Shown here one piece after another: positions 46,621 to 56,712 of a stretch of DNA of 64,000 bases; the stretch's first letter is position 1; every line of letters starts with the position of its first letter. The stretch comes from Hippea sp. KM1 (GTDB taxonomy: Bacteria; Campylobacterota_A; Desulfurellia; Desulfurellales; Hippeaceae): the NCBI RefSeq assembly GCF_000526195.1, contig NZ_JAFP01000001.1, positions 718,001 to 782,000 on the forward strand, given 5' to 3'. The position numbers and the translations under genes are program-made. Under the pieces are notes generated by a model that was not told where the DNA came from, made no database searches, and was given only the letters and a program-made list of their open reading frames with translations.

Positions 46621-47757
46621 TTATATCCCGTATTTGTCGTTTAGGATGTTTGCCGCCAACGAGAGCAGGTCGATGTCTTTTTCTTCTAATATAATTGCAA
46701 ATCTTGCCCCGAAATCTTCATTCTTGTAGCGGTAAGTTCCAATGAGAAGGTGGCTTTCTTTTTCTTGAACAACAAAGAACTTTATGCCCTTTCTTATCGA
46801 TTTTTGCTTGTTGTAATGTGTGTCTTTGCATGTTATTATCCATCTGTTTTCTGCCCAAACCTTATCAACAAACTCCTTAAAACCCCTTGGATAGTGGTGT
46901 TGGCTTAAAGAGGGCGCCTTTCTCTTGCTTTCAGGCAAATCTTTTAATGTTTTCTTCTCTTTTAAAGACAGATAGAATGTTTCAAGGTATAGCGTCCCCA
47001 TTGCGTTTAATTCATACAGCGATTCGCCGTTTTCTTCTATCGAGTCTAAGAATATAAGGATTTTTTCTCTATCGTAGCTTTCTATTTCTTCAATCTCTTT
47101 AGAATCGAGTGTTTCGCCTTTGTTTAGTTTGTGGAATAGATGGGAATAATTCCCTATCAAGGTGTAATCCAACGAAACGGGCATTGGAGGGAAGTCTATT
47201 ATCTCTCCAAAGCTTTCGTGTTTGTAAAATACCGGTATTCCCAGGGATTGTCCGAACAGAACCGCCAATGCAATCTGTGCCTTATACCCCCCTGTCGCAT
47301 CAATCGCTATATTTTTTGAACCGTAAAGGCGTGTTATGTTTCCTATTTTCCTTATTAGGTTCCTTAATCCGTGTTTTTTAAAATCCTTTGGGTTGTTGGG
47401 CTTGAGTTTCTCTATTTTTTCGACCTTGACATTGATTTTTCTTTTGCTGAAGTATTTTTTAAGTATATTGCCTGTTTTTTCACCTTCTTTTGTGTCCGAT
47501 ACAAGGAAAACGATATTCTCGATGTCCAACCACTTTTTCTTTTGTGCTTCTTCTATTGTATTTATTTCAGCGCCGCAGATTCTCTCTGTTGGATTTAGGC
47601 TCAGCAATAGGTCGGTTAGTTTCTCGTAATTTTCCGATTGGTAAGCCTTATAGATTTCTGCTTTGGTTTCTGTGTTGTTTTCCGATTTCTTTAGTCCTTC
47701 GATATTTGTTATAAGGCTTGTGCCGACGGTGCAGATAAGCGTGTTTCTTTTGTTCAT
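46621..47757 (-). CDS. CRISPR-associated CARF-domain effector with unassigned C-terminal domain
   Basis: 378 residues. The N-terminal ~210 residues match the TIGR02619-type CARF domain that senses cyclic oligoadenylate: LICTVGTSLITNI at 7-19, FLVSDTKEGEKTGNIL near 84, and the second-half motif IAIDATGGYKAQIALAVLFGQSLGIPVFYKHE near 150. A helical, winged-helix-like region (~230-265) follows, then ~110 basic residues including WIITCKDTHYNK and LLIGTYRYKNEDFGARFAIILE. That tail has no PD-(D/E)xK or HEPN signature I can recognise; a RelE-like mRNA interferase, as in CARF-RelE proteins, is one possibility. RBS AGAGGAAAG. Near the array and Calp operon. Confidence 0.85.
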   Translation of the reverse strand: MNKRNTLICTVGTSLITNIEGLKKSENNTETKAEIYKAYQSENYEKLTDLLLSLNPTERICGAEINTIEEAQKKKWLDIENIVFLVSDTKEGEKTGNILKKYFSKRKINVKVEKIEKLKPNNPKDFKKHGLRNLIRKIGNITRLYGSKNIAIDATGGYKAQIALAVLFGQSLGIPVFYKHESFGEIIDFPPMPVSLDYTLIGNYSHLFHKLNKGETLDSKEIEEIESYDREKILIFLDSIEENGESLYELNAMGTLYLETFYLSLKEKKTLKDLPESKRKAPSLSQHHYPRGFKEFVDKVWAENRWIITCKDTHYNKQKSIRKGIKFFVVQEKESHLLIGTYRYKNEDFGARFAIILEEKDIDLLSLAANILNDKYGI

Positions 47758-50060: not shown

Positions 50061-50168
50061 GGCTCTTGGTTTCTTGTGTAAGCGTCGATTTTGAATTTAG
50101 CAATTAGCCGCCAGTCGTTGGCTATCCTCCTCAAGTAATCCAAAATTCATAATTCATAATCCAAAATT
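50061..50168 (+). repeat. Direct repeat B flanking the vapBC-ATPase cassette
   Basis: Second copy of the element at 47870-47970, with a small AATTCAT duplication near its right end. It passes without a gap into the first CRISPR-derived tandem unit. Confidence 0.85.
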
Positions 50169-50434
50169 TGAAGAAATTTTCCCTTCAAAAGCGGGAGCGA
50201 CATAAGAATTTTGAATTCTAAATTATAGATTTTAGATTGGTCGTTTGTGCAAGGATAAAACTAATTTAACCGTAAATCCAAAATCCAAAATTTATAATCC
50301 AAAATTTAAAGAAATTTTCCCTTCAAAAGCGGGAGCGACATAAGAATTTTGAATTCTAAATTATAGATTTTAGATTGGTCGTTTGTACAAGATAAAACTA
50401 ATTTAACCGTAAATTCAAAATCCAAAATTTATAA
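50169..50434 (+). repeat. Two tandem ~138-bp units with eroded CRISPR-repeat cores
   Basis: Two nearly identical units, each with CCCTTCAAAAGCGGGAGCGACAT at its start (cores at 50181 and 50319, 138 bp apart) and a shared AT-rich filler containing GATTGGTCGTTTGT and runs of CCAAAAT. The core equals the middle of the CRISPR repeat with five bases deleted. A third unit lies beyond the IS element. No gene in this stretch. Confidence 0.8.
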
Positions 50435-52241
50435 CCCTCATTCCGCACCTCTCCCTCCATTTATACCATAAAACCCCATATAAGTTCCACCCAACAGCTC
50501 CAGTATTAGCCTATGCTTATCTTCCAACCCAACAATTTGTTCTTGGTTGTTTAGAATAAGTAGGTGTATGGCAAAGAAGTTCTCAAACACCCACCTTGCT
50601 GTTGGGTTCTGAATGGGTTTCCCAAGCTGATTGGGAAAGGTCTTGTTTTTATTCTTAAGCTCACTTCTTATTCTGTATTCCAAGGCAGCATATACAAGTA
50701 AGGATATAGTCATTATCATAAGCATTGCTTCAATGCGTTTTGGATTTTTCAAAAACATGGCATCACTTAGAAACTCCGGTGATTTTAGAAACCTAAAGCC
50801 CCTTTCTATCCTCTGTTGTGATTTGTACTCATCAAGCAGTTCTTTTTCTGATAGTTTCATGTCATTGGTTGCAAGGATAAAAAGACCACTCTTTTGGTTC
50901 TGCTTCTGTTCTATGTACCCTTTGTTTGGTTTGGTATCTATAACCCAGTAGTATTCATAGTAATCCGGTTTGGCATCCGATTTTGGTCTTCCTTTTGTCT
51001 TGTATTTGGGCTTTGATATGAGTTTAGCTTCTGTTATGGTTAGGCACTCTAACTTACTTGTTTTTTCTTTAAGTACCTCTTTTGCGTCAGCTTCGCAGAA
51101 AAATCTTCTCCTCTGCAGTTTCTCAATGAGTTTCATTTCCTGTTTTTCTTTTTCTTGATACTCTCTCTTTATCGTTTTATCCATTTTTGATTTAGCATAG
51201 CTGCTTTTATACAGAACCCATTTCTGTCTCATTCCCTCATAATCTACTATATATGGGATAGCTTGATAGTTCTCATCAAGCTGGATAAATTCCCCTTCAT
51301 TGTGGTTTCTGAGTATCTCTTTTGCCTTCTTTAGTTTAGATGGAACCCTTGAGATAAAAAGCATACCGTTCTTTTTAAACTCCTCCATTGTTTTAGAGCT
51401 AAAGAGAGCAGCATCGGCTATTACCTTTGTTTTTGTATCGTTTGCACTTCTTAAAGAGTTGATATGCTCCTTTACTATATTGGCAAATGTCTCTGCATCT
51501 ATTTGATTGCCATCTGCTGGTTTCATCCACACAGGAATGCCTGCTTTGTGTTCCACTATTAGGTTAAGCACCACCTGGTTGAGCTCTGGGTGGTGGTCTC
51601 TGCTGTAACCCTGGGTGATAAAGACTGGGGTTGGTTCATAGTCTTTTTCTTCTCTTCCCTTCATCTTTTGGTTAGGATATTTGCCATCAAGATGAAAGCT
51701 TGTGCTGTCTAAGTGTATGGTTGACGGTTTAAGGTTCAGTATCTTAACTGCTTTGGCTGCTATTTTCTCATATAGCTCACTTACACCGTATTCAAAGAGT
51801 TTATCTAATGTTCTGCCCAGTGCATCATCGTTGAACCACGAAGAATCAACATCCCTTCCGAATAACCTCTTTAGCGGTTTATCCTTGAAAAAGAGTGGTG
51901 TTAGATAGAGCTGTTTGTTGACATAACCAAGACCGTTAAGGATCATTGCCTTTGTTGCTTCACCGTAGCTTGGGTTCTTTGATTTACTTGATGATGGTAT
52001 TGCTTCATCTATGGTTTCTTTAATCTTCAGTTCATCTATCATACCGGCTATCAGTCCTAAGTGATCCATGTTCTTGATAACTGCCTTTTGCTGTGTCATT
52101 TGAATACCCCCTCTTTTTAGGGGTAGGTGAAAGCATTTTCTGTTCCATTTGTTTTACAACCCTTTTCATTATTTTTCGCTCTGTGCGTTTACTGTGCATT
52201 TGGGTTTGGTTAAAATGGAGGTTTGGGTGCGGAAGGGGGGA
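50435..52241 (-). mobile_element. IS1634-type insertion sequence
   Basis: About 1.8 kb with imperfect terminal inverted repeats: left CCCTCATTCCGCACC, right end complementary as CCCCCCTTCCGCACC, each followed inward by a CCTCCATTT block. Flanked by a 5-bp duplication TATAA (50430-50434 and 52242-52246). Joining the flanks restores an uninterrupted 137-bp tandem unit, which confirms the insertion point. One transposase gene, apparently intact. Confidence 0.85.
50438..52099 (-). CDS. IS1634-family transposase
   Basis: 553 residues. N-terminal DUF4277-like region (DHLGLIAGMIDELKIKETIDEAIP), then a DDE nuclease domain of the IS4 superfamily: HLDSTSFHLDG near 147 (first Asp), VIADAALFSSKTMEEFKKNGMLFISRVPSKL near 240 (second Asp), and YKSQQRIERGFRFLKSPEFL near 455 with the catalytic Glu of the YREK-like motif. 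RBS AGAGGGGG. Full length, no frameshift; the stop lies in the left inverted repeat. Confidence 0.93.
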   Translation of the reverse strand: MTQQKAVIKNMDHLGLIAGMIDELKIKETIDEAIPSSSKSKNPSYGEATKAMILNGLGYVNKQLYLTPLFFKDKPLKRLFGRDVDSSWFNDDALGRTLDKLFEYGVSELYEKIAAKAVKILNLKPSTIHLDSTSFHLDGKYPNQKMKGREEKDYEPTPVFITQGYSRDHHPELNQVVLNLIVEHKAGIPVWMKPADGNQIDAETFANIVKEHINSLRSANDTKTKVIADAALFSSKTMEEFKKNGMLFISRVPSKLKKAKEILRNHNEGEFIQLDENYQAIPYIVDYEGMRQKWVLYKSSYAKSKMDKTIKREYQEKEKQEMKLIEKLQRRRFFCEADAKEVLKEKTSKLECLTITEAKLISKPKYKTKGRPKSDAKPDYYEYYWVIDTKPNKGYIEQKQNQKSGLFILATNDMKLSEKELLDEYKSQQRIERGFRFLKSPEFLSDAMFLKNPKRIEAMLMIMTISLLVYAALEYRIRSELKNKNKTFPNQLGKPIQNPTARWVFENFFAIHLLILNNQEQIVGLEDKHRLILELLGGTYMGFYGINGGRGAE

Positions 52242-52395
52242 TATAATCCAAAATTTAAAGAAATTTTCCCTTCAAAAGCGGGAGCAACTAAAAATTTTGA
52301 ATTCTAAATTGTAGATTTTAGATTGGTCGTTTGTGCAAGGATAAAACTAATTTAACCGTAAATCCAAAATCCAAAATTTATAATCCAAAATTTAA
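52242..52395 (+). repeat. Third tandem CRISPR-derived unit, adjoining the array
   Basis: Same ~137-bp unit as at 50169-50434, core at 52268; its core reads GGGAGCAAC, i.e. the CRISPR repeat with five bases deleted. It runs straight into the degenerate terminal repeat of the CRISPR array, whose core is again 137 bp further on. Confidence 0.8.
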
Positions 52396-52886
52396 AGAAA
52401 TTTTCCCTTCAAAAGCGGGAGTAGTGCAACTGATTACCATTCTTGGGGTTCTTGAGTTAATTTTGTTTTGTCGTAATTCCCTTCAGAAGCGGGAGTAGTG
52501 CAACCTTGTCAGGAAATGGCTTAGAGAGGCAAAAGAGACAATCCCGGGTGTGAAGTCGTAATTCCCTTCAGAAGCGGGAGTAGTGCAACCTGTTGGTAAA
52601 GCCATACACAAGGTTTACAAAGGCGTAAAACATGGTCGTAATTCCCTTCAGAAGCGGGAGTAGTGCAACTTCCTTATATCTTGATTAGGTTAAAGGAGGT
52701 AAAAATGAGAGTCGTAATTCCCTTCAGAAGCGGGAGTAGTGCAACAAAATATAAAAGGAGGATAAGAAATGGTTAAACTAGTCGTAATTCCCTTCAGAAG
52801 CGGGAGTAGTGCAACGGCTGCACGGATGAGAATGAATGATGAGGACTCAGAGTCGTAATTCCCTTCAGAAGCGGGAGTAGTGCAAC
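52396..52886 (-). CRISPR. CRISPR array, 7 repeats and 6 spacers
   Basis: 35-bp repeats, plus strand beginning GTCGTAATTCCCTTCAG and ending GGGAGTAGTGCAAC, at 52470, 52555, 52635, 52711, 52781 and 52852, identical to each other. The copy at 52396-52430 has lost its first seven bases and has one internal change, marking the distal end. Spacers measure 39, 50, 45, 41, 35 and 36 nt. Read on the minus strand, the repeat begins GTTGCA and ends ATTACGAC, like Thermus type III repeats, so transcription runs leftward. No cas1, cas2, cas6 or cas10 lies in the window. Confidence 0.97.
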
Positions 52887-52913
52887 AGGACTTCCAAGAA
52901 GCCTATTTGAATA

Positions 52914-52942
52914 AGGATAAGACTTTATAGTCATATTGTCAA
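52914..52942 (-). promoter_or_regulatory. Leader promoter of the CRISPR array
   Basis: Minus-strand TTGACA (52942-52937), 17-bp spacer, TATCCT (52919-52914), starting transcripts near 52907, about 20 bases before the leader-proximal repeat. The rest of the gap 52943-53261 is AT-rich with no gene I can support. Confidence 0.65.
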
Positions 52943-53261
52943 CTTTTTGTAAAGCCTTATAAAAACAGCCTTTCCCGCTGTATGAGAAAAAGCCATCATT
53001 TTATTGTAAAAGACCACTTTTTGACAGGCTTTTTAACAATATAAAAAACCTGCCTATTTGCGCTTATTCCCATCTTTATGCCATTTATGTTAGAAAGTCA
53101 AGGAAAAAATAATGAAAACCAAGCTATACAAAAATTTTTGTTAAACAATAAAACATGTCAAAGATATTGCACACTATCAATTTGCTATTTACCCCTATCT
53201 TTACCTTGCAAGCTTGCTCAATATCGGCACAAACGCTTCGATGGGTTTTGGTCAGGTTAGA

Positions 53262-54716
53262 CTAAACCTTCAGACTGGCTAAGTTAAAGACCTTGAAGTA
53301 AGAAGTCTCTAAAGGTTCGAAATTGTAAACCTCGATATCGTCGAAGGTTTCAACAGCAACACCCAATCCGAACGCCAACAGGACAGGGCAGGCGAAAAAC
53401 ATTAACCTCTTTTTAGTTGTTATTTCCTTTAGCTTGTTGTAATGCGAGTAGATCTCATTTACATAGATAGCCCAGTCGCTTTCCTCTAAATTGCCCCTAT
53501 CTTTGGCCTCGCACGATGCCAGGATGTAATTTTCAAAGTTATTTTTCAAGAATTTTCTTATGTCGCCCTTTGGATTGTGTGATGCAGCGTAAATGGAAAT
53601 GGCAAGGATGTCGGTTTCCTGGGTATCTGTGTCCTTTTCGCATTCTATATGTTCTGGGTTTTTATTAGGCGATTTCAAGAGTCTTAAGTTCCTTTTGGAG
53701 AAGTCTAAAACGACTTTGAACTCTCCTGATGTGTAATGGTAAACAACAAAAGGTTCTTTACAGCCAACCATTGCCCCAAGGCCAAAGGCGAATGTAGCAG
53801 GCCCAAGCAGGCATAAATGCAATATGCAGGTTTTGTCCTTTAGTTTTTCTTTTAGATGCACGATTTTTCCATAAGCCGTTCGTAATATGCCTTCCCAGTC
53901 TCTATTGGGTAAGAATTTACCATCTATATAAAAGGTGAAATCGTCGTCTTTTAAATCGTATAGCCGTTTGGCAAGCTCAAAATCCGTGTTTTGTGCGATT
54001 TGATAGAGGTTTGTCAAAGCCGCCTGTTTTGGTGTTGTATCCTTTTTCGATTGCTTTAAGGCAATGCTAAAGGGGATATTTATTGTGTCTGAGTTTAAGA
54101 GTATATCGAGCTCTTTTAGGTTTTTTATGATTTCTGGATGGATGAGCTTTTTTGGGTAAGCGGCTTTTATTTTTTCTTTTAAAAAATCCACCTCTATTAC
54201 CTTGCCCTCAAAATTTAAATCCCCCGTGAATGCGTAATCTTTTAGTTTTTCGTCATTTTTACAAATAAGCGCTGAAGATAAGGCAAGTAAGAAGGATTTT
54301 CCTGTAAAATCGCCGTAGAATCCGACAAAAAAGTGTTTTCCCGTTAATTTTTCGACCACTTTAAGCTCATTTTCAATGCCCTTTTTGAATGAGAGGGTCA
54401 AATTTTTTAGCTCTATGACGAATAGTTTTATCAATTCTTGTTTATCGTTGTTGTTTGGGCTTACAGCAGGAAAGAACGCCTCTTTAATGTCGTTATTCAA
54501 CAGTTCCTCTGCAGCTTGAGAGTCCATGCCTAAAGCCTCTGCCAAATCTTTAGGGTTTATTTGGTGCCTGTGTTCCCTTAAGAAAATCACTATCTTGCTT
54601 TTTAGTGTGTGTGGTGTGTTGTCATCCGATAGGGTGTTTAGTAGAAGTCTTTTGTGGTATTCATCAAGCGGCTGAGTGGTTGTTGAAATGTATTTTTCTA
54701 TTAAGCTTTGATTCAT
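53262..54716 (-). CDS. calpL: CalpL-like SAVED-domain Lon protease
   Basis: 484 residues. Residues ~100-222 form a Lon-type peptidase domain: GDFTGKSFLLALSSALI (135-151), YAFTGDLNFEGKVIEVDFLKEK (161-182) with the catalytic-Lys equivalent K180. Residues ~295-484 form a SAVED sensor: HLCLLGPATFAFGLGAMV (300-317) and FFACPVLLAFGLGVAVE (440-456), each like one CARF-derived half. The published CalpL is activated by cyclic tetra-adenylate and then cleaves CalpT. The usual Ser of the Lon GPSAG box is not at its expected place. ATGA overlap with calpT; the last gene of the operon. Confidence 0.88.
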   Translation of the reverse strand: MNQSLIEKYISTTTQPLDEYHKRLLLNTLSDDNTPHTLKSKIVIFLREHRHQINPKDLAEALGMDSQAAEELLNNDIKEAFFPAVSPNNNDKQELIKLFVIELKNLTLSFKKGIENELKVVEKLTGKHFFVGFYGDFTGKSFLLALSSALICKNDEKLKDYAFTGDLNFEGKVIEVDFLKEKIKAAYPKKLIHPEIIKNLKELDILLNSDTINIPFSIALKQSKKDTTPKQAALTNLYQIAQNTDFELAKRLYDLKDDDFTFYIDGKFLPNRDWEGILRTAYGKIVHLKEKLKDKTCILHLCLLGPATFAFGLGAMVGCKEPFVVYHYTSGEFKVVLDFSKRNLRLLKSPNKNPEHIECEKDTDTQETDILAISIYAASHNPKGDIRKFLKNNFENYILASCEAKDRGNLEESDWAIYVNEIYSHYNKLKEITTKKRLMFFACPVLLAFGLGVAVETFDDIEVYNFEPLETSYFKVFNLASLKV

Positions 54717-55555
54717 AAGGGTTCTATTTTTAGGATCTCTAACAGGGTTTGGGGGTGTTCTAATGTTGATTTTAGGATTAATTTTTTGGGCAGGAAGCCC
54801 TCAAATACAACTGCGTCTTTTGCATAGACCCTTGAAAGTGTCCCTGCATACTTCTCGTTGAAATAGATAACGAAGTTGTCATTCTCTTTTGTTATGTCGC
54901 CGTATTCTGAAACTATCAAGGCGTCAAATGATGCAGCGGCAAGCCTTTGGTTTAGGGTTTTTTCTAACCCCTCTATGTATTGGCTTAAATTAACGGTGGC
55001 CTCTTCTGCAATCTCTGGCTCATATCCCAGATCGGGCATGAGGAATAGGCTTCGCTTTCGTTCGTTTTCTTTGAAGAGTTCTTGATACGACCCGCTTCCT
55101 TTGATATACGAAAGCCCCGTTCTTTCTTTGGGCAGCCTATCTCCTTCGTTTATAAACCTCTGCATTATCCTTACATCATCTTCGCTTACCTGGTCTATTT
55201 TTATGGATCTGTCTAATACATCTTCTTCCACATATCTGATCAGGCTTTCGATAACCCATCTATGCTCCTTGCCGTCGACTATCAAGTCCTTATCCGAGGC
55301 AAGCTCCCAATAGGGTGAGGCTATAAAGACCTCATAGGGGCATTCTTCTGTGTCCGATATGACAAAATAGAGGCTTTCAAATTGATACACATCCCCGACC
55401 ATTGCCTCTTCCGATTCTTTGGATTTACCCTCTATTAGAGCCTGCGCTTTTTTTAAGTGTTGTATGTTGTTTTTGTTGATTTCTGTGTCTATGTTTTTTT
55501 GTCTGAATTCTAAGTCTTTTAGGTATTGCTCATATACGAATTTTAGCCATCTCAT
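54713..55555 (-). CDS. calpT: CalpT-like MazF-fold anti-sigma protein
   Basis: 280 residues. After a helical N-terminus (1-50), GDVYQFESLYFVISDTEECPYEVFIAS (54-80) starts a MazF/PemK-like barrel extending to about 165, then a separate C-terminal domain (~185-280). In the characterised Sulfurihydrogenibium system CalpT is a MazF homologue that holds the sigma factor CalpS until CalpL cuts it. Assignment rests on this fold, on the position between sigma factor and protease genes and on four-base overlaps on both sides. Sequence similarity to known CalpT could not be measured here. Confidence 0.8.
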   Translation of the reverse strand: MRWLKFVYEQYLKDLEFRQKNIDTEINKNNIQHLKKAQALIEGKSKESEEAMVGDVYQFESLYFVISDTEECPYEVFIASPYWELASDKDLIVDGKEHRWVIESLIRYVEEDVLDRSIKIDQVSEDDVRIMQRFINEGDRLPKERTGLSYIKGSGSYQELFKENERKRSLFLMPDLGYEPEIAEEATVNLSQYIEGLEKTLNQRLAAASFDALIVSEYGDITKENDNFVIYFNEKYAGTLSRVYAKDAVVFEGFLPKKLILKSTLEHPQTLLEILKIEPL

Positions 55556-56175
55556 CCTCTTCCCTCATAAAGATTAACGAATTCTGAGCATATTTCCGAC
55601 AAAAAGAAACTCTTTATTGCCGCATCGACTATGTCTATAGAAAACCTTTCTTTTTCAATAAACTCCTTTATTCTTTTGTGAGCCCTGCTTTTTGCCTTCT
55701 CAAACGAGGCAGCCGTTCTGTTTTCTGAGCCTTTTTGCAGAAGCTCCAGGCATAGGGCCTCTTTTTCTGTCTTTGTTAGCTCCTTTTTGCAGAGTTTTGC
55801 AAATTCTTCAGCTTCTATGCTGATTAATTCGTTCTTGGGGTGGGGCTTCTGTGTGTTTTCAAACTTCAATCTGTTTTTTATGAGCGTTTTTTTCCTTAAT
55901 TGGTCTATTAGGTGGTTTTTTGCTATTGATTTTATATAGGCTTCGATTCTTGCCCTGTTGTTTATGGCCTTTATGATTGTCTGCCTCTTTTTGATTATGG
56001 TCATTACCGTTTCATTTACCAGATCGTCTATATCCATAACATCTGCAAATGGACTGTCTTTTAGGTCTCTGATTGCGCAGGCTGCCTGGGTTTTTATTGT
56101 TTTTATAAGCATCTCTTCCTCGTTGGGTTTTAATGCTTCCCCTGTTAAATACCTTTTTAGTATCTCTTCCACCAC
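55552..56175 (-). CDS. calpS: CalpS-like ECF-type sigma factor
   Basis: 207 residues from a GTG start. Region 2 reads DIDDLVNETVMTIIKKRQTIIKAINNRARIEAYIKSIAKNHLIDQLRKK (core recognition and -10 contact), region 4 LTKTEKEALCLELLQKGSENRTAASFEKAKSRAHKRIKEFI (HTH). A ~35-residue C-terminal extension (DAAIKSFFLSEICSEFVNLYEGRG) is unusual and may contact CalpT. Freed by proteolysis of CalpT, it would redirect RNA polymerase during infection. It overlaps the upstream MazF-like gene by 19 bases and calpT by four. Confidence 0.85.
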   Translation of the reverse strand: MVEEILKRYLTGEALKPNEEEMLIKTIKTQAACAIRDLKDSPFADVMDIDDLVNETVMTIIKKRQTIIKAINNRARIEAYIKSIAKNHLIDQLRKKTLIKNRLKFENTQKPHPKNELISIEAEEFAKLCKKELTKTEKEALCLELLQKGSENRTAASFEKAKSRAHKRIKEFIEKERFSIDIVDAAIKSFFLSEICSEFVNLYEGRG

Positions 56176-56650
56176 TTCTTTTTCCTCAACAGCTTATCTC
56201 TGATGTTTTCCATATAAACGCATGAGCAGATACCGCAGAATGTCATCATCTCATGTAAGTCTTCCTCTTTTATGGTAAAGACCCTTCTTGATTTTTTGCC
56301 CTTTTTCTTATGGAGTGCTAAAACCTTTGATGTGCCGTTCCAATCAAAATACTTAGGACACGATTTGTAATTGCAGTATTCTATATCAAAAAGCAGATTG
56401 CCGCCCCACTGGGATGTCGTTAAGAATATAACCTTGTAATTCTCGCCGATCTTATCCAGGATTATGGCTGGCCTGTGCTTTCTGGCCGGTGCATTGTTTT
56501 TCCTCTGGTATCCCAGATTCAGGTTGTATCTCTCATAGAGCTTTTTACATCGGCAAGCCAGATGGTGTTGATGTATGAATTCTCCTCAGCCTTTCTCTTT
56601 TCCTCTTCGATTATCTGGAATTTGATTTGGTTGAGGGTTGACCATTCCAT
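56157..56650 (-). pseudogene. MazF/PemK-like gene with a frameshift, first gene of the Calp operon
   Basis: Minus strand. From ATG 56650 the frame reads MEWSTLNQIKFQIIEEEKRK... to a stop after ~44 codons. Shifting by one base at the A5 run (T5 at 56542-56546) restores a frame of ~125 residues to the stop at 56157: NNAPARKHRPAIILDKIGEN, VIFLTTSQWGG, then YCNYKSC and CGICSC. The RPAIIL...FLTTSQ pattern is that of MazF/PemK toxins, and the cysteines suggest a metal site. One missing A, a sequencing error, or -1 slippage on AAAAAG would each explain it. The stop overlaps the calpS start. Confidence 0.7.
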
Positions 56651-56712
56651 AGGCTAAATTTATCAAAAAATCCAGAAAATTCAACAATCTGTTGTTTTGC
56701 TAATGTGTGTGA

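What the first reader, a model, noticed from the sequence alone, without database searches (positions are those of the whole stretch)
53262..56175. A CalpL-CalpT-CalpS operon: cyclic-oligoadenylate-triggered protease that frees a sigma factor
Seen: a SAVED plus Lon-type protein, a MazF-fold protein and an ECF-type sigma factor encoded in one strand with four-base overlaps, 400 bp from a CRISPR array. Known: in Sulfurihydrogenibium the same trio forms a complex in which cA4-activated CalpL cuts CalpT and releases CalpS. Inferred: this organism couples CRISPR detection to a transcriptional programme. Few such loci are characterised and the regulon of CalpS is open.
Basis: partly seen in the sequence, partly recalled or inferred. 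Interest (0 to 1): 0.92.

Follow-up and report, generated by a model that had tools for sequence, protein, structure and literature searches.

The report
Orphaned CRISPR-triggered Calp protease–sigma operon
A heat-loving sulfur bacterium carries a complete copy of a known immune relay, in which a protease switched on by a CRISPR alarm molecule should cut a protein and free a gene-switching factor; next to it are the remains of the CRISPR machinery that once served it, and a damaged fourth gene that intact relatives keep in the same operon.

Summary
On the minus strand, calpS (56175–55552), calpT (55555–54713) and calpL (54716–53262) overlap through ATGA junctions, about 380 bp from a CRISPR array. 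CalpL matches solved CalpL (E=3e-43) and keeps the Lon dyad (S141/K182) and ring-nuclease residues. CalpT's C-terminal domain matches the CalpT10 crystal fragment by fold and by profile; its N-terminal domain resembles MazF. CalpS matches ECF sigma models; region 4 is divergent. So the CalpL–CalpT–CalpS reading is right.

(1) Relatives show a four-gene operon, calpM-S-T-L. calpM (conserved-cysteine protein, PADLOC C3a162, weakly PemK-like) lies upstream here too, broken by a 1-nt deletion. (2) The module is orphaned. Relatives have a type III-A cas locus beside it; here about 9.7 kb (cas1–cas2–cas10–csm2-5–card1–cas6) is gone, leaving the array leader next to the last 32 codons of cas6. The only Cas10 is a GGDD-bearing Cmr protein 394 kb away, so activation would have to occur in trans. 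(3) The promoter-like motif shared by the operons has no other intergenic match in this genome, so no wide regulon was found.

New member of a known kind. Protease activity and sigma release were not tested.

The parts
53262..54716 (-). calpL: Lon protease-SAVED protein, 484 aa; catalytic dyad S141/K182, ring-nuclease residues R345 and H380
   Evidence: phmmer to 7qda/8b0u CalpL E=3.1e-43; PADLOC CRISPR-Lon E=1.6e-91; residues read from alignments
54713..55555 (-). calpT: 280 aa, MazF-like N-terminal domain plus CalpT10-like C-terminal domain; predicted cut at the conserved LAAASF motif (residues 205-210)
   Evidence: PADLOC CRISPR-T E=3e-7; Foldseek top hit 8b0u_C CalpT10 TM(target) 0.81, MazF 5co7 prob 0.98; profile top hit CalpT10 E=0.11
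55552..56175 (-). calpS: ECF-like sigma factor, 207 aa, GTG start; region 2 recognisable, region 4 divergent; the only ECF-type hit in this genome
   Evidence: TIGR02937 E=3.5e-7 and 5 of 6 homologues; PF04542 in 4 of 6; no region-4 model, unlike control sigma factors; genome scan
56157..56650 (-). calpM remnant: homologue of the fourth operon gene of relatives (C3a162, conserved Cys motif, weakly PemK-like), broken by a 1-nt deletion in the A-run at 56542-56546; overlaps calpS by 19 nt
   Evidence: tblastn of relatives' M 61-78% identity in two frames; phylum-wide profile hit in two frames here; PADLOC C3a162 in 3 of 4 relatives, best E=5.6e-6
56657..56684 (-). promoter-like motif TTGAA-N14-TGATA[A/G]ATT shared upstream of calpM in four operons
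   Evidence: upstream alignment; in each relative the only exact match is the operon, and in this genome the only intergenic match with up to 1 mismatch
53184..53279 (+). cas6 stub: last 32 codons of the cas6 that in relatives faces calpL tail to tail
   Evidence: protein search with L009 cas6: 94% identity over residues 240-271, E=6e-13; PF10040 E=0.0017 at the same place
52887..53152 (+). CRISPR leader that in relatives runs into the cas1-cas2-cas10-csm operon
   Evidence: blastn 74-80% identity to array leaders of G008, G010, G011 and others; gene order of those contigs
52470..52886 (+). CRISPR array, six full repeats GTCGTAATTCCCTTCAGAAGCGGGAGTAGTGCAAC, the only array of this repeat in the genome; degenerate copies to the left
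   Evidence: the repeat finder; whole-genome pattern search; related repeats in relatives

Best explanation
This is a genuine CalpL-CalpT-CalpS module in a Hippea-like member of the Desulfurellaceae. The likely mechanism, by homology: CalpT holds the sigma factor CalpS inactive. When cA4 binds the SAVED domain, CalpL oligomerises and its Lon dyad (S141/K182) cuts CalpT at the conserved LAAASF motif, giving pieces of about 24 and 8 kDa. CalpS is then freed to direct RNA polymerase, while the SAVED ring nuclease (R345/H380) removes cA4. The module once sat beside its own type III-A cas locus and had a fourth gene, calpM. Here the cas locus has been deleted and calpM is frameshifted, so cA4 would have to come in trans from the Cmr (III-B) Cas10 elsewhere in the genome. 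Shown: the genes, domains, catalytic residues, operon structure, deletion scar and frameshift. Inferred: cA4 specificity, cleavage position, CalpS inhibition and release, and the trans supply.
For: CalpL: phmmer E=3.1e-43 to solved CalpL; S152/K193, R361, H392 and H345 of SsCalpL correspond to S141/K182, R345, H380 and H327 here (residues R361, H392, H345, H474 from PMC11417357; the dyad numbering is from my own knowledge). CalpT: PADLOC CRISPR-T, and CalpT10 (8b0u) as top PDB match by fold and by profile, with the CalpT10 N-terminus falling near the AAASF motif; predicted fragments 24.5 + 8.2 kDa against published 23 + 10. CalpS: ECF models. S-T-L order kept in relatives down to 30% CalpL identity. 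L, T and S are open, and pN is far below pS against all relatives. The own genome has a GGDD Cas10b with a Card1-like effector and a Cas6 in a type I-B locus. Deletion scar: leader and cas6 stub.
Against: No protein contact was modelled. The CalpT model is of moderate confidence (mean pLDDT 60) and the profile hit to CalpT10 alone is weak (E=0.11). CalpS region 4 is not recognised by Pfam. The partner Cas10 is gone and calpM is broken, so the module may be decaying. H474 of SsCalpL is N465 here.
Confidence: 0.7

Rival explanations
1. The locus is a recently orphaned, decaying remnant. With cas10-csm-card1-cas6 deleted and calpM frameshifted, L/T/S are still open only because the deletion is young, and the module is not triggered.
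For: Deletion of about 9.7 kb with a cas6 stub; frameshift in calpM; transposase and degenerate repeats next to the array.
Against: The 971 codons of L, T and S are intact with catalytic residues kept. A second type III system with a GGDD Cas10 and a Card1-like effector is present, so cA4 in trans is plausible. The calpM frame after the shift is still conserved, which fits a young event or a sequence error.
Confidence: 0.25
2. CalpT is a latent MazF-type toxin and CalpL releases a ribonuclease, with CalpS a bystander or the toxin's inhibitor.
For: The N-terminal domain matches MazF (5co7 prob 0.98); an early review described CRISPR-T23 as MazF-like and toxin-like (PMC9704534).
Against: Later papers state that CalpT is an anti-sigma factor releasing CalpS (PMC11417357, PMC12751052). 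calpS lies directly upstream of calpT in every operon where both could be seen. MazF catalytic residues were not tested.
Confidence: 0.07
3. calpM is not part of the system: it is an unrelated gene that happens to sit upstream in this clade.
For: It is broken in the window while L/T/S are intact; it has no model-based function; the published trio is described as working without it.
Against: It is directly upstream of and overlapping calpS in all five relatives with enough contig or close to it, including one at about 30% CalpL identity; absent from every genome of the phylum without calp; matches C3a162, a PADLOC defence-associated family.
Confidence: 0.2

Closest known systems
CalpL/CalpT/CalpS of Sulfurihydrogenibium sp. 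YO3AOP1 (PDB 7qda, 8b0u, 8b0r)
   Same: Lon-SAVED protease with the same dyad and ring-nuclease arginine and histidine, a CalpT with MazF-like plus T10 domains, and an ECF-like sigma factor
   Different: CalpL only distantly similar (phmmer 152 bits); the type III-A locus once beside it is deleted here; an extra upstream gene (calpM) in the operon, broken here. I could not check the Sulfurihydrogenibium locus for calpM or for gene order.
CalpL of Candidatus Cloacimonas acidaminovorans (PDB 9eyi, 9eyj, 9eyk)
   Same: Lon-SAVED architecture, near full-length match E=2.6e-27
   Different: more distant than SsCalpL; its partner genes were not available to me
calp operons of Desulfurellaceae/Desulfurellales MAGs (L009-L013, L029)
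   Same: same trio where the contig is complete, same gene order, 30-78% CalpL identity
   Different: these keep an intact calpM where the contig reaches it and, where seen, a type III-A cas locus next door
Type III-E Craspase sigma module (NF041236)
   Same: CRISPR-linked protease and sigma factor idea
   Different: sigma model only E=0.0023, far below its cut-off; no such protease or effector noted in the window

Membership tests
Calp (CalpL/T/S) system | CalpL: Lon protease domain fused to a C-terminal SAVED domain, homologous to CalpL | tested here: met
   phmmer E=3.1e-43 to 7qda; SAVED over cut-off; PADLOC CRISPR-Lon
Calp (CalpL/T/S) system | Ser-Lys Lon dyad and cA4-cleaving SAVED residues (R361, H392) | tested here: met
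   S141/K182, R345, H380 by alignment; a further position (H474) is N465
Calp (CalpL/T/S) system | CalpT with MazF-like domain and C-terminal T10 domain | tested here: met
   CRISPR-T E=3e-7; Foldseek 8b0u_C TM 0.81, rmsd 1.9 over 75 columns; MazF prob 0.98; model pLDDT 60
Calp (CalpL/T/S) system | CalpS: ECF-type sigma factor in the same operon | tested here: met
   TIGR02937 E=3.5e-7 spanning the protein (below its own cut-off); Sigma70_r2 just over cut-off; region 4 unrecognised by Pfam
[quoted passage not shown]
   Locally only array, leader and cas6 stub remain; the single clear Cas10 (GGDD) is 394 kb away in a Cmr locus. Relatives meet it. This is a loss in this lineage, so it bears on present function, not on homology of the trio.
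Calp (CalpL/T/S) system | cA4-triggered CalpT cleavage and CalpS release | not testable with these tools
MazF/PemK toxin | CalpT or CalpM matches the PemK/MazF family by sequence | tested here: inconclusive
   CalpT: no Pfam hit, fold match only. CalpM: PemK E=0.063 in one member; structure model too poor, pLDDT 41
Type III-E Craspase | CAS_III-E sigma model over cut-off | tested here: not met
   17.9 bits against a cut-off of 100
CBASS SAVED effector | adjacent CD-NTase gene | tested here: not met
   nearest neighbours scanned are a transposase, a Cache/HD-GYP protein, an AAA_14 ATPase and a CARF protein; no CD-NTase among them

The most novel reading that the evidence does not exclude
In this class of bacteria Calp is a four-part device, calpM-S-T-L. 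Freed CalpS mainly turns on its own operon through the TTGAA-N14-TGATA promoter, and the real output is CalpM, a cysteine-motif PemK-like protein. The regulon of CalpS would then be a self-amplifying switch delivering one effector, not a broad programme.
Probability: 0.15. Interest if true: 0.75.

Novelty: new member of a known kind. Interest (0 to 1): 0.52.

Why it matters
Calp is rare among surveyed type III effectors (17 of 1113 loci, PMC11229360), and as far as I know the targets of its sigma factor are undetermined. This locus and its relatives supply a set of operons for cleavage-site and promoter comparison, a conserved and uncharacterised fourth gene, and a natural test of whether an effector can outlive its own CRISPR locus and be served in trans by another one.

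Tried and rejected
Searches of phage, plasmid and viral-contig collections for CalpL found nothing. hhalign of CalpS against single sigma factors from the same genomes was uninformative, because single-sequence profiles are too weak; I relied on curated models and positive controls instead. The AlphaFold model of CalpM was too poor for fold search, so its MazF likeness stays weak. A CalpM profile against the PDB gave only chance-level hits to a retinoic-acid-binding protein. The promoter motif with up to one mismatch fell inside ORFs everywhere in this genome except at the calp operon, so no regulon was found. The viral fold library gave only weak hits, several of them PemK-like proteins. Most matches to the Cas10 palm model in this genome are weak and fit GGDEF-type domains, so only the one strong hit is counted as Cas10. 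Rfam gave nothing around the locus. The original SsCalpL and CCaCalpL papers are not in the library. Sulfurihydrogenibium partner genes could not be fetched.

Full report
OBSERVATION. The array lies 376 bp beyond the end of calpL. The window is bases 718001-782000 of a single-contig 1.742 Mb genome. Its close relatives are MAGs named Desulfurellaceae/Desulfurellales, so a Hippea-like organism is inferred; the host itself carries no name in these tools.

CALPL. Against the PDB the best matches are CalpL of Sulfurihydrogenibium (E=3.1e-43 over residues 38-467) and the CalpL homologue 9eyi (2.6e-27). PADLOC CRISPR-Lon matches at 1.6e-91. Reading the alignment, S141 and K182 fall on the Lon dyad, and R345, H380 and H327 on SsCalpL R361, H392 and H345, which were studied as ring-nuclease residues in PMC11417357. 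SsCalpL H474 corresponds to N465. The dyad positions are kept in every homologue that covers them.

CALPT. Pfam and NCBIfam are silent. PADLOC CRISPR-T matches at 3e-7 over residues 27-270, and four of seven homologues hit it. An AlphaFold2 model from six homologues has mean pLDDT 60, with residues 50-140 and 180-280 better than the rest. Its top PDB match is 8b0u chain C, the CalpT10 fragment in complex with CalpL (TM 0.81 by target, rmsd 1.9), followed by E. coli MazF (prob 0.98). Independently, a profile of the C-terminal 85 residues places CalpT10 first of 177,635 PDB sequences, weakly (E=0.11) but co-linearly, so that residue 1 of CalpT10 falls near residue 208. That is inside LAAASF, whose A207, A208, S209 and F210 are invariant among six homologues, though the last two differ in the most distant one. 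Cutting there gives about 24.5 and 8.2 kDa; published fragments are 23 and 10 kDa. The cleavage position is an inference.

CALPS. TIGR02937 (sigma70-ECF) matches at 3.5e-7, below its own cut-off, and Sigma70_r2 just passes. Five of six homologues hit the ECF model and four of six region 2. No member shows a region-4 Pfam match, whereas an ECF factor from a sister species and FliA do strongly (1.7e-12, 8e-14). Apart from this gene the genome yields only sigma-70, sigma-32-like and FliA-like hits, so CalpS is its only detected ECF-type factor.

A FOURTH GENE. In all five relatives whose contig reaches far enough, a 151-159 aa gene sits directly upstream of calpS; in four of the five its end overlaps the calpS start, and in L010 it ends 2 bp before it. 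I call it calpM. It has conserved cysteines, a C-x2-C and in most a C-x4-C pair, and a PemK-like KHRPAIIL...VIFLTT stretch, but the Pfam PemK match is only E=0.063. Three of four members match PADLOC C3a162, best 5.6e-6, and the only C3a162 hit in 25 genomes is the G013 copy. A calpM profile finds it in five genomes, all with calp, and in none of the 17 without. It misses the very diverged G003 copy, and the G016/G017 contigs end before it. In the window it is present at 56650-56157 in two frames, because one A is missing from a run that should hold six (56542-56546). The frame after the break is still well conserved (pN 0.13-0.16 against L009 and L011 with saturated pS), so the break is recent or a sequence error.

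AN ORPHANED MODULE. In relatives the array leader runs into cas1, cas2, cas10 (GGDD), csm2-csm5, a small 134-aa gene, card1 and cas6, and cas6 faces calpL tail to tail; in the more distant G003 the parts are in a different order but still together. In the window the sequence after the array (52887-53152) matches these leaders at 74-80%, and about 30 bp later come the last 32 codons of cas6 (53184-53279, 94% identity). By comparison with G010 (two contigs that overlap in cas6) about 9.7 kb is missing. The genome's only clear Cas10 is in a Cmr locus at 1.166 Mb with GGDD, RT-Cas1, Cas2 and a Card1-like effector, but a different repeat. A Cas6 exists in a type I-B-like locus at 488 kb. The trio may therefore be served in trans, which is inferred, or be on its way out.

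PROMOTER. Four operons share TTGAA-N14-TGATA[A/G]ATT just upstream of calpM, at identical spacing. The exact motif occurs once in each of three relatives, at the operon. In this genome there are seven matches with up to one mismatch, six of them inside ORFs and the seventh at calp. It could be a CalpS site or a plain sigma-70 promoter. Either way it gives no sign of a broad regulon.

VERDICT. A real CalpL/T/S set and a new member of a known kind. The extra interest lies in calpM and in the orphaned state. Sequence evidence cannot show that the switch still works.

Noticed in passing
window 46621-47757 (-): A CARF protein (PADLOC CARF7 CARF_DUF2103 E=2.8e-114, CARF_RelE 1e-56; Pfam Cas_APE2256) 5.5 kb from calpL: a further likely cyclic-oligoadenylate effector, so this genome has at least three (with CalpL and the Card1-like protein of the Cmr locus).
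   Followed up: partly
L009, L011 and window calp operons: Mosaic ancestry: L009 is closest to L011 in calpM/S/T but closest to the window in calpL (pS 0.54 against 0.81), suggesting recombination near the calpT/calpL boundary.
   Followed up: partly
G000 C1 1158900-1168500 (L027): Cmr type III-B locus with an RT-Cas1 fusion, Cas2, a Card1-like nuclease and a short Cas10 in which Pfam finds no HD domain, plus a 21-repeat array.
   Followed up: partly
G000 C1 480000-489110 (L107): Apparent type I-B cas locus whose cas1 region is next to or interrupted by a transposase-like gene.
   Followed up: no
window 50137-52431: Transposase (DUF4277/DDE, 50438-52099) flanked by 138-nt tandem repeats that carry degenerate CRISPR-repeat-like cores, at the leader-distal end of the array.
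   Followed up: no
window 55552-56175, CalpS region 4: The region-4 (HTH) part of CalpS is not recognised by Pfam sigma region-4 models in any of six homologues, which suggests unusual -35 recognition.
   Followed up: partly
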